A DNA stretch of 64,000 bases from NCBI GenBank assembly GCA_020523885.1, contig JAJAPY010000013.1:1-64000 (forward strand), in the 5' to 3' direction. Of this stretch, positions 7,708-57,366 are shown piece by piece. The stretch is from Candidatus Liberimonas magnetica. GTDB lineage: Bacteria > Elusimicrobiota > Endomicrobiia > Endomicrobiales > JAFGIL01. The position numbers were made by a program, and so were the translations under genes. The notes beneath the pieces are model-generated. The model was given only the letters and a program-made list of their open reading frames with translations. It was not told the origin of the DNA and ran no database searches. Position 1 is the stretch's first letter. Each line of letters opens with the position of its first letter.

Positions 7708-9270
7708 CTATTTTTTATAAGTGTCGATCTTGTATGTTTTGTTTTCATAAAATGTAATTCTAATAGCTCCATTATCAGTTGTAGAATAAATCTTTTTATC
7801 ATTGAATTCATCCGGGTCGTAAAGCGGGTTTTTACCTTTTGAGGCTATAACAACTTCAGGGCTAACGGCAGACATGAATTCCTCGCCCAAGCCTTTCTTG
7901 CCGTGTTTGGGAAGCTCAAGCACTGTTGAACTTAAATCCATATCTGATACGGCAAGTTGTTTCTGAATCCTATAGGGCATATCGCTTGTAAAAAGTATTT
8001 TGTTGCCGTAATATTCAAACTGCAAGACAAGGGAATTATTCTCTCTGTGTTTTGAAACAGTTTTGGGTGACAGGACAGAAAGTTTGCTTTTGTCCGCTAT
8101 AAAGCTGTCTCCTTCCGATACTTTGCTAAAGTATATCCTGCGGTCTCTTATAAAGCTCATAATATTTTTAAAATCATCATCCTGATAAATCGCTTCAGAT
8201 GTAATAATTTGGCTTACCTCAAAATTGTCCGTTATAGCTTCAAGCCCGCCTGTCCTTGGAACTGTAAAATTTGTGATTATTATTTTATCGAGTTTTTTTA
8301 CTCCCTGGCCCCAGAGATATGGGCATACTATCCTTTGCCCGACGTCAAAATAAGGGTTAAAGCTCCCACCTGTGTCTATGAGCCAGTTCTGGCCGTTTGG
8401 GAACCTTATATGTACGGCATCGCCGTAGCCCACGTCTAAGAAAGTTACACTTAACTGCTTTTTTAAACGATAATCATCAATGTAACTTTTACCGAAAGGC
8501 AAAATAAGTGCCGGTATCAGCAAGAATGCCATCCCGGGGTATTTTTTCAGCTTAAATATACCCCACACGAATACGTAGTAGCAGGACAAAAACAAAATCG
8601 AGGGTGTTGGAACTCTTGCCGTTGCAAATGATACATCTGCAAAATAAACTACCAGCCAATAAAGCAGTTTTACCGTAATATTTATCGCTAATGTAACAAT
8701 TGGTGTTAAAAAGGACAATAATGAATTGACTAAATAAAATACAATGCCAAGGCTCGTTAATATCCCGCTAAGAGGGACTATCACCAGGTTGCTTATTATC
8801 CCTATTACGGATATTTTGTTGAAATATAGTGCGAGGAGCGGGTCAACGAATATTTGGGCGGAAATGGATACAAGAAAAAGTCCCATCAGCCATTTTACCC
8901 AGAAATAAGAATTTATAAAAGGCTTAAACAGGATAGGGTATAAATAAACTATGCCAAGCGTAGCTGCAAAGGAGAGCATAAAGCTTGCGGTAAAAAGGGA
9001 TTGCGGGTCAAAGATGAGTATGGTAAGAGCTGCAAGCGAAAGCGACTGGTATATTCCCGATTCTCTTGCAAGCCCTAAAGAGATAATTATAAAAATAGCC
9101 ATCACGCTTGCCCGCAGTATAGGCGGGTTTGCTCCTGTTAATAACATATATAAAATTATGAAAGGGATGGTTAAAAATGCCGCGTATCTTTGCCTCAAGC
9201 CCAACATCCGAAATAGAGTCAGGAAAATAATTACAACGTATGCAACATTGAGGCCACTTACGACTAAAAC
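7708..9270 (-). pseudogene. comEC: ComEC 3' fragment: competence membrane domain and metallo-beta-lactamase domain
   Basis: This is the last 519 codons of the DNA-uptake channel gene, cut off from its start by the 47-kb element. The minus-strand frame begins at the element border with HVLVVSGLNVAYVV, the second half of the conserved H-x-L-x-x-SGL-N/H-V motif of the ComEC competence domain. Six or so membrane segments follow, then LSVTFLDVGYGDAVHIRFPN, the start of the C-terminal metallo-beta-lactamase-like domain, with LIDTGG. The first internal ATG is at 9207 (MLGLRQRYAAF), so a truncated protein of 499 residues is possible but would lack the N-terminal domain and half the motif. Joining codon 9265-9267 to 56692-56694 restores the frame to a 744-residue protein, normal for ComEC. 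Confidence 0.95.
9268..9270. other. Left attachment junction (attL core AAC)
   Basis: Comparing the two element borders, host bases to the left read GACTAA-AAC and element bases continue GTGTGTCC. The same AAC occurs at the right border. Only three bases are shared, which fits a large serine recombinase (2-3 bp core) and not a tyrosine integrase. Crossover anywhere within AAC restores comEC. Confidence 0.85.
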
Positions 9271-9272
9271 GT

Positions 9273-9665
9273 GTGTCCTCCCAACACAATGCAGGTAAAA
9301 AATTATGTATCAGCATGGAGATTACCATTCCTGAGAAGCAGAAGAGGGCTGAAAACAAACCCGGCAAGGACTTCGTTACCTTATATTTTGCCCTTCCCAA
9401 AAACCTGTCAGACAGGCTGGAAGGTCATGCCAAAGATCAGAAGACTACTGAATCAGCAGTCTTGAGGAATATGATTGATGAGTATTTTAGCAAAAACAAA
9501 GGAAAAAGTCTTGATTACAGCCCATTGAAGAAACTGTCAATCCTTGGCATGAAGACCACTCCACGGACTGTTCGCAGAGACCAGGATAAAATGTTAAGGG
9601 ATTTTTCACAAAAGACCGGGAGAAATGTCAGCGAGATTGTGAGAAATGCGATTGAAAAATATTAA
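9273..9665 (+). CDS. Ribbon-helix-helix-like protein; C-terminal part of the recombinase frame in the circular form
   Basis: A 130-residue frame starting at GTG 9273, two bases inside the element; ATG 9315 (MEITIPEKQKRAEN) is an alternative start. It seems to hold two RHH-like units: TLYFALPKNLSDRLEGHA followed by ESAVLRNMIDEYFSK, and TTPRTVRRDQDKMLRDFSQ followed by GRNVSEIVRNAIEKY, each a strand plus two helices. RHH proteins bind DNA as dimers. In the reconstructed circle this frame is continuous with the serine recombinase (GAA 56691-56693, then CGT, then GTG 9273). It could serve as a recombinase DNA-binding tail, a repressor or a directionality factor. No clear ribosome-binding site is visible in the integrated form. 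Fold by motif only. Confidence 0.7.
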   Translation: MSSQHNAGKKLCISMEITIPEKQKRAENKPGKDFVTLYFALPKNLSDRLEGHAKDQKTTESAVLRNMIDEYFSKNKGKSLDYSPLKKLSILGMKTTPRTVRRDQDKMLRDFSQKTGRNVSEIVRNAIEKY

Positions 9666-9680: not shown

Positions 9681-9709
9681 TTGACAAGGCAATTATCGTG
9701 TGGTATAAT
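9681..9709 (+). promoter_or_regulatory. Consensus sigma-70 promoter of the tRNA-like RNA
   Basis: TTGACA at 9681-9686 and TATAAT at 9704-9709 with a 17-base spacer: a perfect housekeeping promoter, predicted start near 9716. It is the best promoter I found in the window and points at the tRNA-like RNA. Confidence 0.85.
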
Positions 9710-9756
9710 ATTAGCAGTCTATCAATGTAAGTGCTAATTAAACGCTTTGATTGTTT

Positions 9757-9842
9757 CATGGTATGGCGGAACTGGCAGACGCGGCAGCCTATCAAGCTGT
9801 TGCACTTTAGTGTGCGTGAGGGTTCAAGTCCCTCTTCCAAAA
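9757..9842 (+). ncRNA. Degenerate class II (Leu-like) tRNA-like RNA
   Basis: The D-arm TGGCGGAACTGGCAGACGC, a long variable arm (GCAC...GTGC) and a perfect T-arm (GAGGG-TTCAAGT-CCCTC, 9818-9834) give a leucine-like class II tRNA body. The anticodon stem GCAGC/GCTGT holds the loop CTATCAA, so the anticodon would be AUC (an Asp codon reader), wrong for a leucine-type body. The 7-bp acceptor stem pairs at only about four positions (CATGGTA with TTCCAAA). It is therefore unlikely to be an ordinary decoding tRNA. A consensus promoter lies 48 bases upstream and a hairpin with a T-run follows at 9930-9982, so the RNA would be roughly 270 nt with the tRNA-like part in its middle. Large phage-associated RNAs such as GOLLD and ROOL are known to occur near or with tRNAs; membership here is untested. 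Confidence 0.6.
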
Positions 9843-9929
9843 ATTCGCCGTTTTTAGCGGCTTTATTATATGTTATAAAAGGAATAATGAAACCATAATT
9901 TTCTATATCTAGACACCTTACCTCTGAAG

Positions 9930-9982
9930 TCGAGTCGCTATCGCTGTCCTGCACGTAGGATATTATGGCGCTCGATTTTTTT
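9930..9982 (+). terminator. Hairpin plus T-run after the tRNA-like RNA
   Basis: TCGAGTCGCTAT pairs with ATGGCGCTCGA (one bulge), then seven T. It would end the RNA begun at 9716, or act as an attenuator before the small ORF at 10011. Confidence 0.65.
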
Positions 9983-10010: not shown

Positions 10011-10151
10011 ATGAGTCAAAAGAAACCAGAAACAAGACTTGAGTTTCGTTCAGCTGTATCCGGGCGTTTTGTCAAAGATACTTATGGTAAACAACACCCT
10101 AAAACAACCGAACGTGAAAGAGTCCCACTCCCAGGCAAAGGAAGAAAATAG
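10011..10151 (+). CDS. 46-residue basic protein with an SAVSGRFV core
   Basis: ATG 10011 follows a strong AAAGGAGGTGAG ribosome-binding site. The peptide begins MSQKKPETRLEFRSAVSGRF and continues to VKDTYGKQHPKTTERERV. Tiny proteins with an S-A-x-S-G-R-F/Y-V ... H-P-x-T-T pattern are widespread on phages and plasmids, with no firm function that I know. The strong ribosome-binding site and family-like pattern argue that it is real in spite of its size. It lies between two terminator hairpins, so its transcript may be attenuated. Confidence 0.7.
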   Translation: MSQKKPETRLEFRSAVSGRFVKDTYGKQHPKTTERERVPLPGKGRK

Positions 10152-10384
10152 TTAGTTCTCTATGAGGTGGTCATCTTGCATATAACTATTATTAGTGTTG
10201 AAAGGTCGCCACATCCTTTGTAGATCGTACCCTGTGTCCTTATACATTAGGCATGGGGTACGATTATCTAGGGATTGTTTGAAAAGGAGGTTGTAAAAGA
10301 GTATAATCAGCCTATGGGGAATCTAGGGGTGGAATACATATTTAATAGAAGACTATGCCGTTTTCCTGGTGTGGTCTTTTTTGT
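10152..10384 (+). promoter_or_regulatory. Structured non-coding stretch ending in a terminator
   Basis: No gene of size is seen. A hairpin pairs ATCGTACCC (10224-10232) with GGGTACGAT (10256-10264). GAGGTGG near 10165 may pair with CCACATCC near 10209. A terminator closes it: AAGACTATGCC pairs over 11 positions (with GU pairs) with GGTGTGGTCTT at 10349-10378, then TTTTTTG. Possible structured RNA or a 3' untranslated region of the small ORF. Confidence 0.5.
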
Positions 10385-10494
10385 TTGTATGAGATGGAAT
10401 TGGATAGTTGATACATTATGACTTAAAAAAGACTTAAAAAGTAGAAATCTGCGAAGGTTAATACAATAAAATCTACAAAAAAAGGGGTAATTAG

Positions 10495-27236: not shown

Positions 27237-27923
27237 GTGTTTTTTCCTATTTCCATGGAGTTCAGAAAACTTATGAAATCTGCACCGGGAAAACCGAAGA
27301 AAAAGAGGTTTAACTGGACACTTGACGAAAGCAAGTATCTTTCAACAGAGGAAGTCAAAAAACTCCGGGAAACATGCCTAAAGAGAAGGGATATTGCTGT
27401 TATACGGCATGATTATATTCCCGTGAGAGACTGGTTCATGGTCGAGCTTGGCCTTAATGCCGGGCTTCGTGTTGCTGAAATGGCAAATCTCAAAGTTTCT
27501 GATCTATTCATAGATGAAAACCAGTCTTCTATATCTACTATCGGCAAGGGAAGCAAGAAAAGAGCTGTCTGGATAAGTAAACGCTTCAAAAGAAGCTGTA
27601 TATGGTTTTTAGGCTGGAAGCAGAGAATAGGGCAGAGCATAAGCCCTGATTCCTATTTATTGACTGCGCAGGACAGCAAGAGATTGACTACAAGGGCATT
27701 GCAGAAGGCATTCAAGCGGTGTATGGCAAAGGCAGGGCTGGCAAGCCATTACTCAATACATTGCCTGCGCCACACTTACGGAAGCCATCTCTATGTCTCA
27801 AGCGGTCATGATTTAAGGCTTATCCAGGAACAGCTTGGCCATTCATCTGTAAAGGTAACGGAAGTATATGCAAGTGTAATGGATGTAGATGCAAAAAAAG
27901 CAGTTGAGAGGCTATATAAGTAA
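27237..27923 (+). CDS. Tyrosine recombinase, catalytic domain with short N-terminus
   Basis: A 228-residue integrase-family protein from GTG 27237 (AAAGG about 11 bases upstream); ATG 27255 is an alternative. Catalytic residues are in order: Arg in GLNAGLRVAEMANLK, Lys after STIGKGSKKRAVW, HCLRHTYGSHL (H-x-x-R), LGHSSVKVTEVY (His and the Tyr nucleophile). The usual N-terminal core-binding domain (about 90 residues) is largely missing, with only a basic segment KSAPGKPKKKRFNW before the catalytic domain. It follows the defence island terminator, so it may be a remnant integrase of a nested insertion that brought the island. Confidence 0.85.
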   Translation: MFFPISMEFRKLMKSAPGKPKKKRFNWTLDESKYLSTEEVKKLRETCLKRRDIAVIRHDYIPVRDWFMVELGLNAGLRVAEMANLKVSDLFIDENQSSISTIGKGSKKRAVWISKRFKRSCIWFLGWKQRIGQSISPDSYLLTAQDSKRLTTRALQKAFKRCMAKAGLASHYSIHCLRHTYGSHLYVSSGHDLRLIQEQLGHSSVKVTEVYASVMDVDAKKAVERLYK

Positions 27924-32320: not shown

Positions 32321-32896
32321 ATGCGAAAAGAGGTGACGGCAAATTATGAGTGGGTGGCTGAAAGTGCTAGGCGAAAAGCCATTCTATTGAGTTTTAACAG
32401 GCCAATGATTAAATCTGAGATTGAGGAAAAGGTTTCTTCTTTTATTGGTATCAAAGGCAGGGCAAGCGTTAAGCTGAAAGAATTTATTGACAGAGGACTG
32501 ATAGTATTCTCAAATCAGGCAGTAAGAGAAGGCAGGATTTACAGCTTATCCGAAACCGGCAGGGGAATTGCCCTTGAGGTTGCGGAATCAGGCAATTTTC
32601 ATTGGCAGTATTCCGAGCCGGTGCTTGACTGGCGATTATATGGCAGTATTGTTTGCGGTAGGCGAAAGAGAAAAATATTGCATGATATAGTAGAGAAAGG
32701 GCGCATTACTACGATTTTAAAACACTATCATATAAAAGCTGAACTCTTGCGGGATACCCCCCGTAGTTATAGATACAAAATTCTTAATGACTTCCTGAAA
32801 TCAGGGGTTGTGCAGAAGATTATTGAAAAAGGAGTGCCTGTATATGTGCCGACTGAGAAGGCCAGGGAGTTATATTCACTTATTTTTGCGAATTAG
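32321..32896 (+). CDS. Winged-helix DNA-binding protein
   Basis: A 191-residue basic protein with a wHTH: RKAILLSFNRPMIKSEIEEK, GIKGRASVKLKEFIDRGLIV and a wing at GRIYSLSETGRGIALEV (about 15-85). A second wHTH-like repeat may be present in the C-terminal half (RKRKILHDIVEKGRITTILK and YKILNDFLKSGVVQKIIEKG), so it may be a tandem wHTH. Archaeal-style regulators look like this. It is preceded by the TTAGGACA motif, so it may be autoregulated. It converges on the tyrosine recombinase at 32893 with a 4-base overlap. Confidence 0.7.
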   Translation: MRKEVTANYEWVAESARRKAILLSFNRPMIKSEIEEKVSSFIGIKGRASVKLKEFIDRGLIVFSNQAVREGRIYSLSETGRGIALEVAESGNFHWQYSEPVLDWRLYGSIVCGRRKRKILHDIVEKGRITTILKHYHIKAELLRDTPRSYRYKILNDFLKSGVVQKIIEKGVPVYVPTEKARELYSLIFAN

Positions 32897-34122
32897 CTTT
32901 GATTCTTCTTTTTTATATTTATCTTGGTTGATTCTATTTTTTCGTTCATTTTTGCCCATTTCTTTTTTAGCTCTATTCCTTTAGCAGGATCGTTCATTCG
33001 CACCCCTTGTTTATCTAGTTCTATTAACATAGTCTTAATAAAATCTAAAGAAATGTCCTGAAAATCCTTTAGGTTATTGAACTGGTCAGTTAGGCTATTT
33101 ACTTTTTCTTCCAATTCAGTCTTTTTATCAGGGGGCAGTTCTTCAGTCTGGTAGATTTGGTTTTTTAAAATCGCTTTCAAGGTTTCTTCATCTAAGTGTT
33201 CATAGGCCTGGCTCATGTCCTTAGAGTGACCCATGAAGTCAGCAGCCGTGTCCTTGCTTATCTTACCTTCACGTGCCAGCTTGTATAACATCGTGGCTCT
33301 GCTATGTCTCAGGAGATAGTTCCACATATTACGTCCAACCTTATCAGACAGCCCACGCATCCACAAGCTAATAGTAGATTTATCGATTGGTTTGTTTATA
33401 TCCCCCTTACTATGGAAAACATAAACACCAATAGTTCCAAGCCTTTCTTGTTCTTGTTTTAACAGATGCAAATAGCCAGTAGCTTTCTTTACAAACACAG
33501 GCCGAGACCTTTTTGTCTTTGTGGCATAAATATTAACCTCTGAAATGTCTCCATCTATGCTCAGCTTTAAGTCTGCCCACTTCAACAGCCTTGTCTCAAT
33601 GGTCCTTAGTCCAGCTTCAAATTGAACCAAGAAGAATGTCTTATAGAATAGCCTACTTTCATGTTTTAGAATATTCTCAATATCTATTTCGGTAAGCATA
33701 TCTGCGGAAGACATCTTATTTTTATTAGCAGGTTTTGAGATTAGCCTGATATCTTCTAAGTTATTGAATCGAGCTGACCAATCCTTAAAATGCCATTTAA
33801 GAAAATTTCTTAAGTTTATCTTAATGTTATTGCGCGCATAATCACCCATATAGGAATTGTTAAGCAAAACCAGGAAGTTAATAATGTCATTTAAGGTTAG
33901 TTTTGAAAAAGGCTTTTCTGTAACATATCGGATATGTAATACATAGCGCTTGATGTCTGCCAAAGTCTCGGCAGTCATAGAACCATACTTGGCTCTAGCC
34001 GTTCTATATTTTAAATACTGGCTAATAATATCCTGCTCTTTCTTAGGTAGGGAATTATAAAAGAATTCAATCGGCGAGCCCCCTTGTCTGCCTTTCTCGA
34101 ACTTCGGATAATTATTTAGCAT
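32893..34122 (-). CDS. Tyrosine recombinase/integrase (full length)
   Basis: A 409-residue Xer/integrase-type protein. The N-terminal SAM-like binding domain is at about 30-130. The catalytic part holds EAGLRTIETRLLKWADL (Arg), a Lys in TKTKRSRPVFVKK, LLRHSRATMLY (H-x-x-R) and FMGHSKDMSQAYEHLDEE (His and Tyr). The remainder is a coiled-coil tail (PPDKKTELEEKVNSLTDQFN). The sequence style resembles integrases common in archaea and candidate phyla. It may resolve element multimers or handle internal cassettes, since the chromosomal borders fit the serine recombinase instead. Convergent with the winged-helix gene. Confidence 0.88.
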   Translation of the reverse strand: MLNNYPKFEKGRQGGSPIEFFYNSLPKKEQDIISQYLKYRTARAKYGSMTAETLADIKRYVLHIRYVTEKPFSKLTLNDIINFLVLLNNSYMGDYARNNIKINLRNFLKWHFKDWSARFNNLEDIRLISKPANKNKMSSADMLTEIDIENILKHESRLFYKTFFLVQFEAGLRTIETRLLKWADLKLSIDGDISEVNIYATKTKRSRPVFVKKATGYLHLLKQEQERLGTIGVYVFHSKGDINKPIDKSTISLWMRGLSDKVGRNMWNYLLRHSRATMLYKLAREGKISKDTAADFMGHSKDMSQAYEHLDEETLKAILKNQIYQTEELPPDKKTELEEKVNSLTDQFNNLKDFQDISLDFIKTMLIELDKQGVRMNDPAKGIELKKKWAKMNEKIESTKINIKKKNQS

Positions 34123-55130: not shown

Positions 55131-56810
55131 ATGCTTGAACCTAATCCGAAACAGAAAGTAAAAGTTGCACTTTATGCGCGTGTTTCAACTGAAGAACAGA
55201 CAAATAACTATTCTCTGGATGCACAGAAGGACTTGCTTATTAAATATGCCAAAGAGAACAACTTTGTTATTACAGGGGAATACATAGACGGCGGTTATTC
55301 AGGAACGAGCGATGACAGGCCGGAATTCCAAAAGATGATGGAAGATGCGAGAGGGGGTAAATTCAATTTGGTGCTGTTTTACAAGTATGATAGGCTTTTT
55401 AGGAACAATAGGCATTTGCTGAATACAGTTGAACAGCTTTCTCAATATGGTGTTGCAATAAAATCAATCACAGAGCCTTTTGACACAAGCAACCCTATGG
55501 GCAAGTGCATGGTCTCAATTTTGGGTAGTATGGCAGAACTAGAGAGGAATAATTTTTTGGAACGCTCGAAGCAAGGCAAATTAAGAAGGTACAGGGAAGG
55601 TTATTATGCCGGGAGCGGAGTTTTTGGCTATGATTATGATAAAGAGACAGATATTCTCACAATAAACACTAATGAGGCAGAAATTGTTAAGCATATTTTC
55701 AGTGAATATATTCAGCCGGAGTCTTCCCTATTAAAGGTTGCAAGAAATTTGAGAAAGCAGGGTTTGAAGACAAAGAAAGGGCTTGAGTTTCAGTCTCATT
55801 GTATTCATGGTATTCTTTTAAATTCAATGTACACAGGAAAATGGTATGCGAATAGATTAGGCCCTAAAAACAGCCTGAAGCCAAGGGATCTATGGATTGA
55901 AGTCAAAGTGCCTGCAATAGTTTCAGAGGAAGAATATAATCTTGCACATAAGCTTCTAAAGGAAAGGCGCATTTATTCCAAAAGAAACGTGAAGTATGAT
56001 TATCTCTTACAAGGGCTAATTAAATGTGGTGCTTGTGGCTCTAAAATATCAGGCACATCAGACAGCTCATTGCCAACAATGATTAATGGCAGGCAGTACG
56101 GGCCTTATTTCAAGCTTTATTACAGGTGTAATCATTACTCAAAAAATCTCTTTGAAAAAAAAATTAGCTGTGATTTGAGATGGATTCAGTCTGAATTGAT
56201 TGACGGTGCTGTCTGGAATAAGGCTGACATCATTCTAAATAATCCTGAAATTATAAGAAAAGCCGTAGAACGGGAAAGAGAATCAATGCCTGAAAGGGAT
56301 GTTTTGCAGAAATCTTTGAAGAAGAATGAGGATGCTCTAAAAAGACTTTGCAGGGAAGAAGAAAGGATAATTGAGGCTTACAGGCGCAATATTATCAGTA
56401 TTGAGCAATTAGACCAGCAGATTAGCGATATAAGGCTGAAGAAGGAGGCTTATAGCCATGAAATTGAAAGAATTGGCCTTCTGCTTGAGGATAAGAAGGA
56501 GAATATTGAAAGTGCCATTGATTGTGTCAGCCAGATAAACAAAGGCATTGGAAAGCTCAATCCTGATATAAAGAAACGGGTCTTGAGGCTTCTTGACACA
56601 AGTGTTGTGGTGAATACCAACGGAAAGGCAAATCTTACCTTTAGGATTCCGCTATCCCTTCCAGAGTCTTTTCCCCCTATTATGTCGGCAGAACATGCAT
56701 CACACCCGCATTTACGAATTTGTTCTTCATTTCATAGCTCAGGTTTTCATCACTCCCGACAAGCATTGGTATCAATAAAGATGCTTCCAAGGCGGGGAAT
56801 TTATCCTTGA
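55131..56810 (+). CDS. Large serine recombinase; tail switched by integration
   Basis: A 559-residue integrase. The resolvase-type catalytic domain has VALYARVSTEEQTNNYSLDA, nucleophile Ser19, and KYDRLFRNN. Recombinase domain about 165-300. A zinc ribbon follows (LIKCGACGSKI...YRCNHYSK...CD, about 300-345), then a coiled coil (EEERIIEAYRRNIISIEQLD, about 400-480). AAAGGAGGTG precedes ATG 55131. The frame crosses the element border: codons 522-559 come from antisense comEC. Codon 521 (GAA 56691-56693) is the last element codon. In the predicted circle the frame continues into the RHH frame at 9273, for 652 residues in total. It probably catalyses integration at the GT/AC core inside AAC in comEC. 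Confidence 0.95.
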   Translation: MLEPNPKQKVKVALYARVSTEEQTNNYSLDAQKDLLIKYAKENNFVITGEYIDGGYSGTSDDRPEFQKMMEDARGGKFNLVLFYKYDRLFRNNRHLLNTVEQLSQYGVAIKSITEPFDTSNPMGKCMVSILGSMAELERNNFLERSKQGKLRRYREGYYAGSGVFGYDYDKETDILTINTNEAEIVKHIFSEYIQPESSLLKVARNLRKQGLKTKKGLEFQSHCIHGILLNSMYTGKWYANRLGPKNSLKPRDLWIEVKVPAIVSEEEYNLAHKLLKERRIYSKRNVKYDYLLQGLIKCGACGSKISGTSDSSLPTMINGRQYGPYFKLYYRCNHYSKNLFEKKISCDLRWIQSELIDGAVWNKADIILNNPEIIRKAVERERESMPERDVLQKSLKKNEDALKRLCREEERIIEAYRRNIISIEQLDQQISDIRLKKEAYSHEIERIGLLLEDKKENIESAIDCVSQINKGIGKLNPDIKKRVLRLLDTSVVVNTNGKANLTFRIPLSLPESFPPIMSAEHASHPHLRICSSFHSSGFHHSRQALVSIKMLPRRGIYP

Positions 56811-57366
56811 TAGTTTTAATAATGTTTTTCCTTAAAGAATAGGCAGCTGATTTGTAAAAAGGAGGCTGCTCATAACCTGTTTTCTCGATTGATTTCGCGT
56901 AAAAAATAGTATATATACCCTTACGGCCCAGGTATTTTGCGTAATTAAATCCTCCCGGGTTAGTTGTTTGAAACGGTGTTTTAATATCCCCGTTCATTAA
57001 AAGGATATCTCCGGGTTCAATATCGTTGATCTGTTTTTCTTTTGGCTTATAATTTATAAGTGTTTTTCCGCCTCTTTTGGCATTATTTAAAGAATAAATA
57101 TCGAGCACAAACGCTACTTTGCCGTTTCTTTCTTCCGGAGGAAGTATTACTCGCCCCCGTAATAGCTGTTTTTGCTGTCCGGCATAGATAGATATGCCGT
57201 CCTTAGAAGGAGGGGAAACAAAAAAACCTTTTAGGTCAAGTATGAGCAAAGTAAAAGCATACAATAAAGTTAAAGTTATTATAGGCCTTTTTGTAATTAA
57301 TTTATAAATAAATATGAAAGGGTTTAAAGAAACATGAAAGGTAAGTTTGGAACTGTTGTTTTCCAT
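56680..57366 (-). pseudogene. comEC: ComEC 5' fragment
   Basis: The first 225 codons of comEC. The native end is GVMHV at the attR core, where three element-encoded residues (LPT) and a stop follow. The N-terminus has membrane helices (IITLTLLYAFTLLILDL) and the OB-fold-like DUF4131 region (LLRGRVILPPEERNGKVAFV, GDILLMNGDIKTPF). The motif LLIPMLVGSDENLSYEMKNK then FVNAGVMHVL is the start of the competence domain. Joined to 7708-9267 it forms the full 744-residue protein. Natural transformation should be lost while the element is integrated. Confidence 0.95.
56692..56694. other. Right attachment junction (attR core AAC)
   Basis: Element sequence TCGGCAG-AAC is followed by host comEC ATGCATCACACC. 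The shared triplet with attL is AAC; the bases on either side differ (G versus A before, G versus A after). Both fragments of comEC join in frame at the triplet. Confidence 0.85.

What the first reader, a model, noticed from the sequence alone, without database searches (positions are those of the whole stretch)
9681..9982. Perfect sigma-70 promoter driving a degenerate tRNA-like RNA next to attL
TTGACA-17-TATAAT leads, 48 bases on, into a class II tRNA body with an intact D-arm, variable arm and T-arm, but a broken acceptor stem and an AUC anticodon on a Leu-type body. A hairpin with seven T ends it. An ordinary tRNA would not look like this, and neither would a random relic with a perfect promoter and terminator. 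It may be a structured RNA with a tRNA-like domain, possibly related to GOLLD or ROOL, or a decoy tRNA.
Basis: partly seen in the sequence, partly recalled or inferred. Interest (0 to 1): 0.7.

Follow-up and report, generated by a model that had tools for sequence, protein, structure and literature searches.

The report
Leucine-type tRNA-like RNA, acceptor broken
Near one end of a 47-kb mobile element that splits a DNA-uptake gene lies a transfer-RNA-like gene of the leucine type, with a strong promoter but a broken amino-acid-accepting end and a rewritten anticodon, so it probably cannot work as an ordinary tRNA and is either a kept tRNA mimic or a young relic.

Summary
Window 9681-9709 is a perfect TTGACA-17-TATAAT promoter; 9757-9842 is a class II tRNA body with anticodon AUC; a strong hairpin with seven T follows at 9926-9982. 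A leucine-tRNA covariance model scores it 72 bits (real leucine tRNAs 85-98, serine/tyrosine tRNAs at most 55), so it is of leucine lineage. Its acceptor stem pairs at 4 of 7 positions, a chance level; 42 of 43 other tRNAs of the genome pair at 7 of 7. It lies 487 bases inside a 47.4-kb serine-recombinase defence element precisely inserted in comEC.

GOLLD and ROOL are not supported, and no Ro (TROVE) protein was found. The perfect promoter is not odd: two host tRNA genes have 12/12 promoters too. No homologue of the AUC form was found.

All eight departures from the known leucine-tRNA letters fall in the acceptor (5) or anticodon (3), none in 51 other sites (naive p = 3e-6). That fits poorly with random decay, so a non-translating tRNA mimic is my slightly preferred reading (0.42) over a young relic (0.38). 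Selection cannot be shown from one copy.

Noted in passing: a large phage family of tRNA-like RNAs with one fixed acceptor and hypervariable interiors.

The parts
9681..9709 (+). sigma-70 promoter TTGACA-N17-TATAAT with extended -10 TG
   Evidence: sequence
9721..9752 (+). leader that can form a hairpin (AUCAA/UUGAU and AAGUG/CGCUU by eye); start site inferred near 9716
   Evidence: sequence; not tested; not the predicted minimum-energy fold
9757..9763 (+). 5' acceptor strand CAUGGUA, mismatched at positions 1, 2 and 6 of 7
9766..9782 (+). D arm; every letter occurs at that place in real leucine tRNAs
9784..9800 (+). anticodon arm GCAGC-CUAUCAA-GCUGU, 5/5 paired; anticodon AUC at 9791-9793
9801..9817 (+). 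class II variable arm, stem GCAC/GUGC
9818..9834 (+). T arm GAGGG-UUCAAGU-CCCUC
9835..9842 (+). 3' acceptor strand UUCCAAA and discriminator A73; no CCA encoded (neither do the host's leucine tRNAs)
9847..9861 (+). small hairpin GCCGUUUUUAGCGGC with a weak U tract, possible first terminator
9926..9982 (+). strong intrinsic terminator-like hairpin and T7
9315..9665 (+). ribbon-helix-helix protein gene directly upstream
9268..9270 (.). left junction (attL core GTT) in comEC
   Evidence: joining the flanks at GTT gives an open 744-aa ComEC
56692..56694 (.). right junction (attR core GTT) in comEC
55131..56810 (+). large serine recombinase of the element

Best explanation
A tRNA gene of the leucine lineage, carried by a serine-recombinase defence element, has lost what translation needs and is now transcribed as a tRNA-like RNA. 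Shown: leucine lineage, broken acceptor, non-leucine anticodon, intact D, T, anticodon and variable arms, strong promoter and terminator sequences, place in the element. Inferred: with mispairs at 1-72, 2-71 and 6-67 the RNA should be a poor substrate for 5' and 3' end maturation, CCA addition and charging, so it does not decode. What it keeps is the elbow (D and T loops with U8-A14, G18-G19 and U54-U55-C56) and the long variable arm, the part that tRNA-handling proteins grip. It would act as a tRNA mimic that occupies such a protein, for example a tRNA-cleaving or tRNA-processing enzyme of the element, the host or an incoming phage. The partner is unknown, and transcription itself is predicted, not observed.
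For: Leucine model 72.3 bits against 85-98 for real leucine tRNAs and at most 55 for serine/tyrosine tRNAs. All 8 departures from the leucine-tRNA repertoire are in the acceptor (5 of 14 sites) or anticodon (3 of 3), none in 51 other sites; Fisher p = 3e-6 if sites are independent; real divergent leucine tRNAs do not show this pattern. Anticodon and variable stems differ in sequence from relatives' leucine-CAA tRNAs yet stay fully paired, with double changes. Predicted pairing: T arm 0.99 and anticodon arm 0.96, acceptor 0.26 against 0.80-1.00 in real leucine tRNAs. Own perfect promoter and strong terminator. The surroundings are a defence island.
Against: A single copy with no homologue in 59 relatives, phages, plasmids, a genome-collection pattern scan, or 13 loci with related recombinases, so selection cannot be shown. 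The p value shrinks to about 0.02 (own estimate) if the eight changes came in three block events. The fold is no more stable than shuffled sequence (z -0.3 to -0.6). No partner protein was identified; a neighbouring HEPN-like protein match is sub-threshold.
Confidence: 0.42

Rival explanations
1. A young relic: a leucine tRNA gene carried as cargo by the element (or a chimera of a tRNA body with other flanks) was disabled a short time ago. It still has its promoter and terminator but the RNA does nothing.
For: Broken tRNA genes and fragments at mobile elements are common (PMC9897764), and the same genome has a second one, a truncated tRNA-Leu copy on contig C8. Host tRNA genes have equally perfect promoters. 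No homologue. Acceptor pairing at chance level. Fold no better than shuffled.
Against: Placement of changes is not random: all three anticodon bases changed and none of 51 architecture sites; all broken pairs are in one stem of five (0.017 by chance).
Confidence: 0.38
2. An aberrant tRNA that is still charged with leucine and reads aspartate (GAU/GAC) codons, a mis-decoding RNA that would harm translation.
For: A73 and the elbow, reported leucine identity elements in bacteria (own knowledge), are intact; the anticodon loop keeps U33 and A37-A38. Tolerance of other anticodons on class II bodies is known from allo-tRNAs (PMC7609411).
Against: Three acceptor mispairs including 1-72 and 2-71 should block maturation and CCA addition; only a Met tRNA deviates from 7/7 among host tRNAs.
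Confidence: 0.08
3. A leader or attenuator: the tRNA-like domain and terminator control the 46-aa reading frame at 10011-10151, which has a strong ribosome site after the terminator.
For: Order promoter, structured RNA, terminator, Shine-Dalgarno, small ORF. The ORF has distant plasmid relatives, best 62% over 34 residues.
Against: No antiterminator alternative seen in the folds; the terminator stays in the centroid.
Confidence: 0.05
4. A piece of a known large structured RNA (GOLLD, ROOL) or a bacterial Y RNA with a Ro protein.
For: These contain tRNA-like domains (own knowledge).
Against: No Rfam match other than tRNA even at permissive thresholds; no TROVE (Ro) protein in the genome.
Confidence: 0.02

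Closest known systems
Bacterial tRNA-Leu (class II tRNA)
   Same: D arm, T arm, variable arm, A73, U33, tertiary-contact bases; 75-79% identity over the body to leucine-CAA tRNAs of the same order
   Different: acceptor 4/7 paired, anticodon AUC is not a leucine anticodon (all leucine anticodons have A35)
Irregular allo-tRNAs and the allo-tRNA-UAU pseudogene of Edaphobacter C40 near a transposon gene (reviewed in PMC7609411)
   Same: class II-like body, non-cognate anticodon, stem-destabilising changes, link to mobile DNA, proposed non-translational role
   Different: those are serine-type with a 12-bp 8/4 or 9/3 acceptor domain; this is leucine-type 7/5 with a broken acceptor
tRNA gene fragments left by integration (PMC9897764)
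   Same: broken tRNA gene close to a mobile element junction
   Different: here the whole body is present and the element's target is comEC, not a tRNA gene
Bacterial Y RNAs (YrlA) with Ro protein
   Same: tRNA mimic with elbow but no working acceptor (own knowledge)
   Different: no TROVE protein in the genome, no Y-RNA match

Membership tests
functional tRNA-Leu | leucine-type body by covariance model | tested here: met
   72.3 bits, above all serine/tyrosine tRNAs
functional tRNA-Leu | paired acceptor stem | tested here: not met
   4/7 against 7/7 in 42 of 43 host tRNAs
functional tRNA-Leu | leucine anticodon (A35) | tested here: not met
   anticodon AUC
allo-tRNA | 12-bp acceptor/T domain in 8/4 or 9/3 form | tested here: not met
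   T stem of 5 pairs; no alternative register pairs the acceptor beyond 5/7
GOLLD / ROOL | match to the Rfam models | tested here: not met
Y RNA / Ro system | TROVE-domain Ro protein in the genome | tested here: not met
   (control rang in Deinobacterium chartae)
non-translating tRNA mimic | elbow architecture kept while translation-specific parts changed | tested here: met
non-translating tRNA mimic | conservation of that state between independent copies | tested here: inconclusive
   no second copy found
tRNA relic left by integration | a second partial copy of the same tRNA at the other end of the element | tested here: not met
   no second copy in the window

The most novel reading that the evidence does not exclude
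A defence island carries its own leucine-derived tRNA mimic that cannot be charged or decode but presents a tRNA elbow and class II variable arm, serving as a decoy for tRNA-attacking enzymes or as a regulatory partner of an island protein.
Probability: 0.15. Interest if true: 0.7.

Novelty: new variant of a known kind. Interest (0 to 1): 0.38.

Why it matters
If kept as a mimic, it would be an RNA component of a phage-defence island and a test case for non-translational tRNAs on mobile elements, a proposal made earlier for irregular allo-tRNAs (PMC7609411). If a relic, it is a clean example of a broken tRNA gene that an annotation program reports as tRNA-Asp. Either way the automatic 'tRNA-Asp' label is misleading.

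Tried and rejected
GOLLD/ROOL and other Rfam families: none. Y RNA with Ro: no TROVE protein. Leucine bodies with a CTATCAA loop elsewhere: 0 in genome contigs; of 72 IMG/VR matches to a looser pattern, 70 were unrelated sequence and two (L090, L103) had a leucine-type D arm; L090 led to the unrelated phage family noted below. Related elements through the serine recombinase: no close relatives in viral contigs, two distant ones (26% and 24%) in genome contigs, about 35% identity in the phylum, none of the 13 loci read with a leucine-like RNA near the recombinase. The ribbon-helix-helix protein has no relative in 340 genomes of the phylum, viral contigs or plasmids. A host tRNA-Leu-CAA with an intron was suspected at C8:1265 but that is a truncated tRNA-Leu-TAA copy. 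A repeat GCAGYCTATCAA in the leader and anticodon arm (9714, 9784) was judged within chance by a rough estimate.

Full report
What was checked. The sequence at 9681-9982 holds all the parts described. The promoter is an exact TTGACA-17-TATAAT with a TG before the -10, the only such site in 64 kb (about 0.12 expected by base composition). ARAGORN reads 9756-9843 as 'tRNA-Asp (atc)' and Rfam's tRNA model gives 36.6 bits, the lowest of 44 matches in the genome, where the next lowest is 50. The strong hairpin 9926-9979 with T7 is a good terminator candidate; a weaker hairpin at 9847-9861 comes first.

What it is by descent. A covariance model built from 18 leucine tRNAs of the host and its order scores the RNA 72.3 bits. 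Real leucine tRNAs score 85-98, the host's serine and tyrosine tRNAs at most 55. It is therefore leucine-type, and 'tRNA-Asp' is an artefact of reading the anticodon. The host has leucine tRNAs TAA, TAG, GAG and CAG; no CAA gene was found, though a search with a relative's CAA gene was made.

What is broken. The acceptor strands CAUGGUA and UUCCAAA pair at 4 of 7 positions, which two unrelated strands would reach with probability 0.24; 42 of 43 other host tRNAs pair at 7 of 7, the exception being a Met tRNA at 6 of 7. A version with a 2-base bulge (UUU-CA-UGG with CCAAAA) can be drawn but is not the predicted fold. Predicted acceptor pairing is 0.26 against 0.80-1.00 in real leucine tRNAs, and the whole fold is no more stable than shuffled sequence. 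The anticodon AUC differs from every leucine anticodon at all three places.

What is kept. D, anticodon, variable and T stems are fully paired, with two-sided changes relative to leucine-CAA tRNAs of relatives in the anticodon and variable stems. Of 68 sites compared outside the variable arm and discriminator base, eight carry a letter not seen in the 18 leucine tRNAs: five in the acceptor, three in the anticodon triplet, none in the other 51 (Fisher p = 3e-6 if sites were independent; about 0.02 by my estimate if they are three block events). Random decay of a tRNA gene does not predict this, whereas loss of the translation-specific parts with the body kept does. The split into sites was chosen after looking, and one copy cannot prove selection, so I hold the mimic and the young-relic readings almost level (0.42 and 0.38).

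Promoter argument. Host tRNA-Met and tRNA-Leu-TAA have 12/12 promoters as well. A perfect promoter is what a tRNA gene in this genome can have, working or recently disabled.

Surroundings. The RNA lies 487 bases inside a 47.4-kb element. ComEC's N-terminal part is at 56680-57366 (-) and its C-terminal part at 7708-9207 (-); joining the flanks at the shared GTT (9268-9270 and 56692-56694) restores an open 744-residue ComEC. A large serine recombinase (55131-56810) stands at the right end. The cargo is a defence island: DNA methyltransferases and a specificity subunit, an Mrr-type nuclease, PD-Lambda-5-like and SIR2 proteins, HerA/Mad8-like ATPases and an SNF2 helicase. A search for serine recombinase with comEC returned among others the streptococcal prophage of PMC4260502, which I recall as inserted in comEC. 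The gene directly upstream of the RNA is a ribbon-helix-helix protein.

Relatives. DNA comparison with 59 related genomes gives only ordinary leucine tRNAs among the loci read. Phage and plasmid collections give only short body matches. Thirteen loci around related serine recombinases hold no leucine-like RNA.

Known systems. No GOLLD, ROOL or other Rfam family matches, and no Ro protein was found for a Y-RNA reading. [quoted passage not shown] these are serine-type with a different acceptor layout. tRNA fragments at integration sites are common (PMC9897764), but there the tRNA is the integration target, which it is not here.

Verdict. It is a new variant of a known kind: a broken or repurposed tRNA gene on a mobile element.

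Noticed in passing
L090:1500-3500 (-) and loci L164-L283 (IMG/VR): A large family of phage tRNA-like genes: one near-invariant acceptor stem (AGTCAGG/CCTGACT), leucine-like D arm and fixed T arm, but a hypervariable interior in place of the anticodon and variable arms. 152 members in 92 loci, 143 distinct interiors, 65-162 nt, 130 intergenic, only 23 called by ARAGORN; canonical tRNAs lie in some of the same contigs. It looks like a natural tRNA scaffold carrying variable RNA; two literature searches aimed at it turned up no description.
   Followed up: partly
window 9270-56694: 47.4-kb serine-recombinase element with many defence genes splits comEC at its conserved HVL-SGL motif; the host presumably cannot take up DNA while it is integrated.
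   Followed up: partly
window 56692-56810: The serine recombinase frame runs about 38 codons past the right junction into comEC DNA, so its C-terminus would change on excision.
   Followed up: no
L146:1220-1310 and contig C8:6057 of the genome: A truncated copy of tRNA-Leu-TAA, promoter included, lies 4.8 kb upstream of the intact gene, which suggests another element that integrated in this tRNA.
   Followed up: partly
window 27237-27923 and 32893-34122: Two tyrosine integrases inside the element suggest nested or composite islands.
   Followed up: no
window 10279-10385: A second promoter-like site (11 of 12) followed by about 70 bases and a terminator-like hairpin, possibly another small RNA.
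   Followed up: no
window 10011-10151: A 46-aa ORF with a strong ribosome site right after the terminator; unannotated relatives on three plasmids.
   Followed up: partly
window 9714-9725 and 9784-9795: GCAGYCTATCAA occurs at the presumed transcription start and again across the anticodon loop; probably chance.
   Followed up: partly
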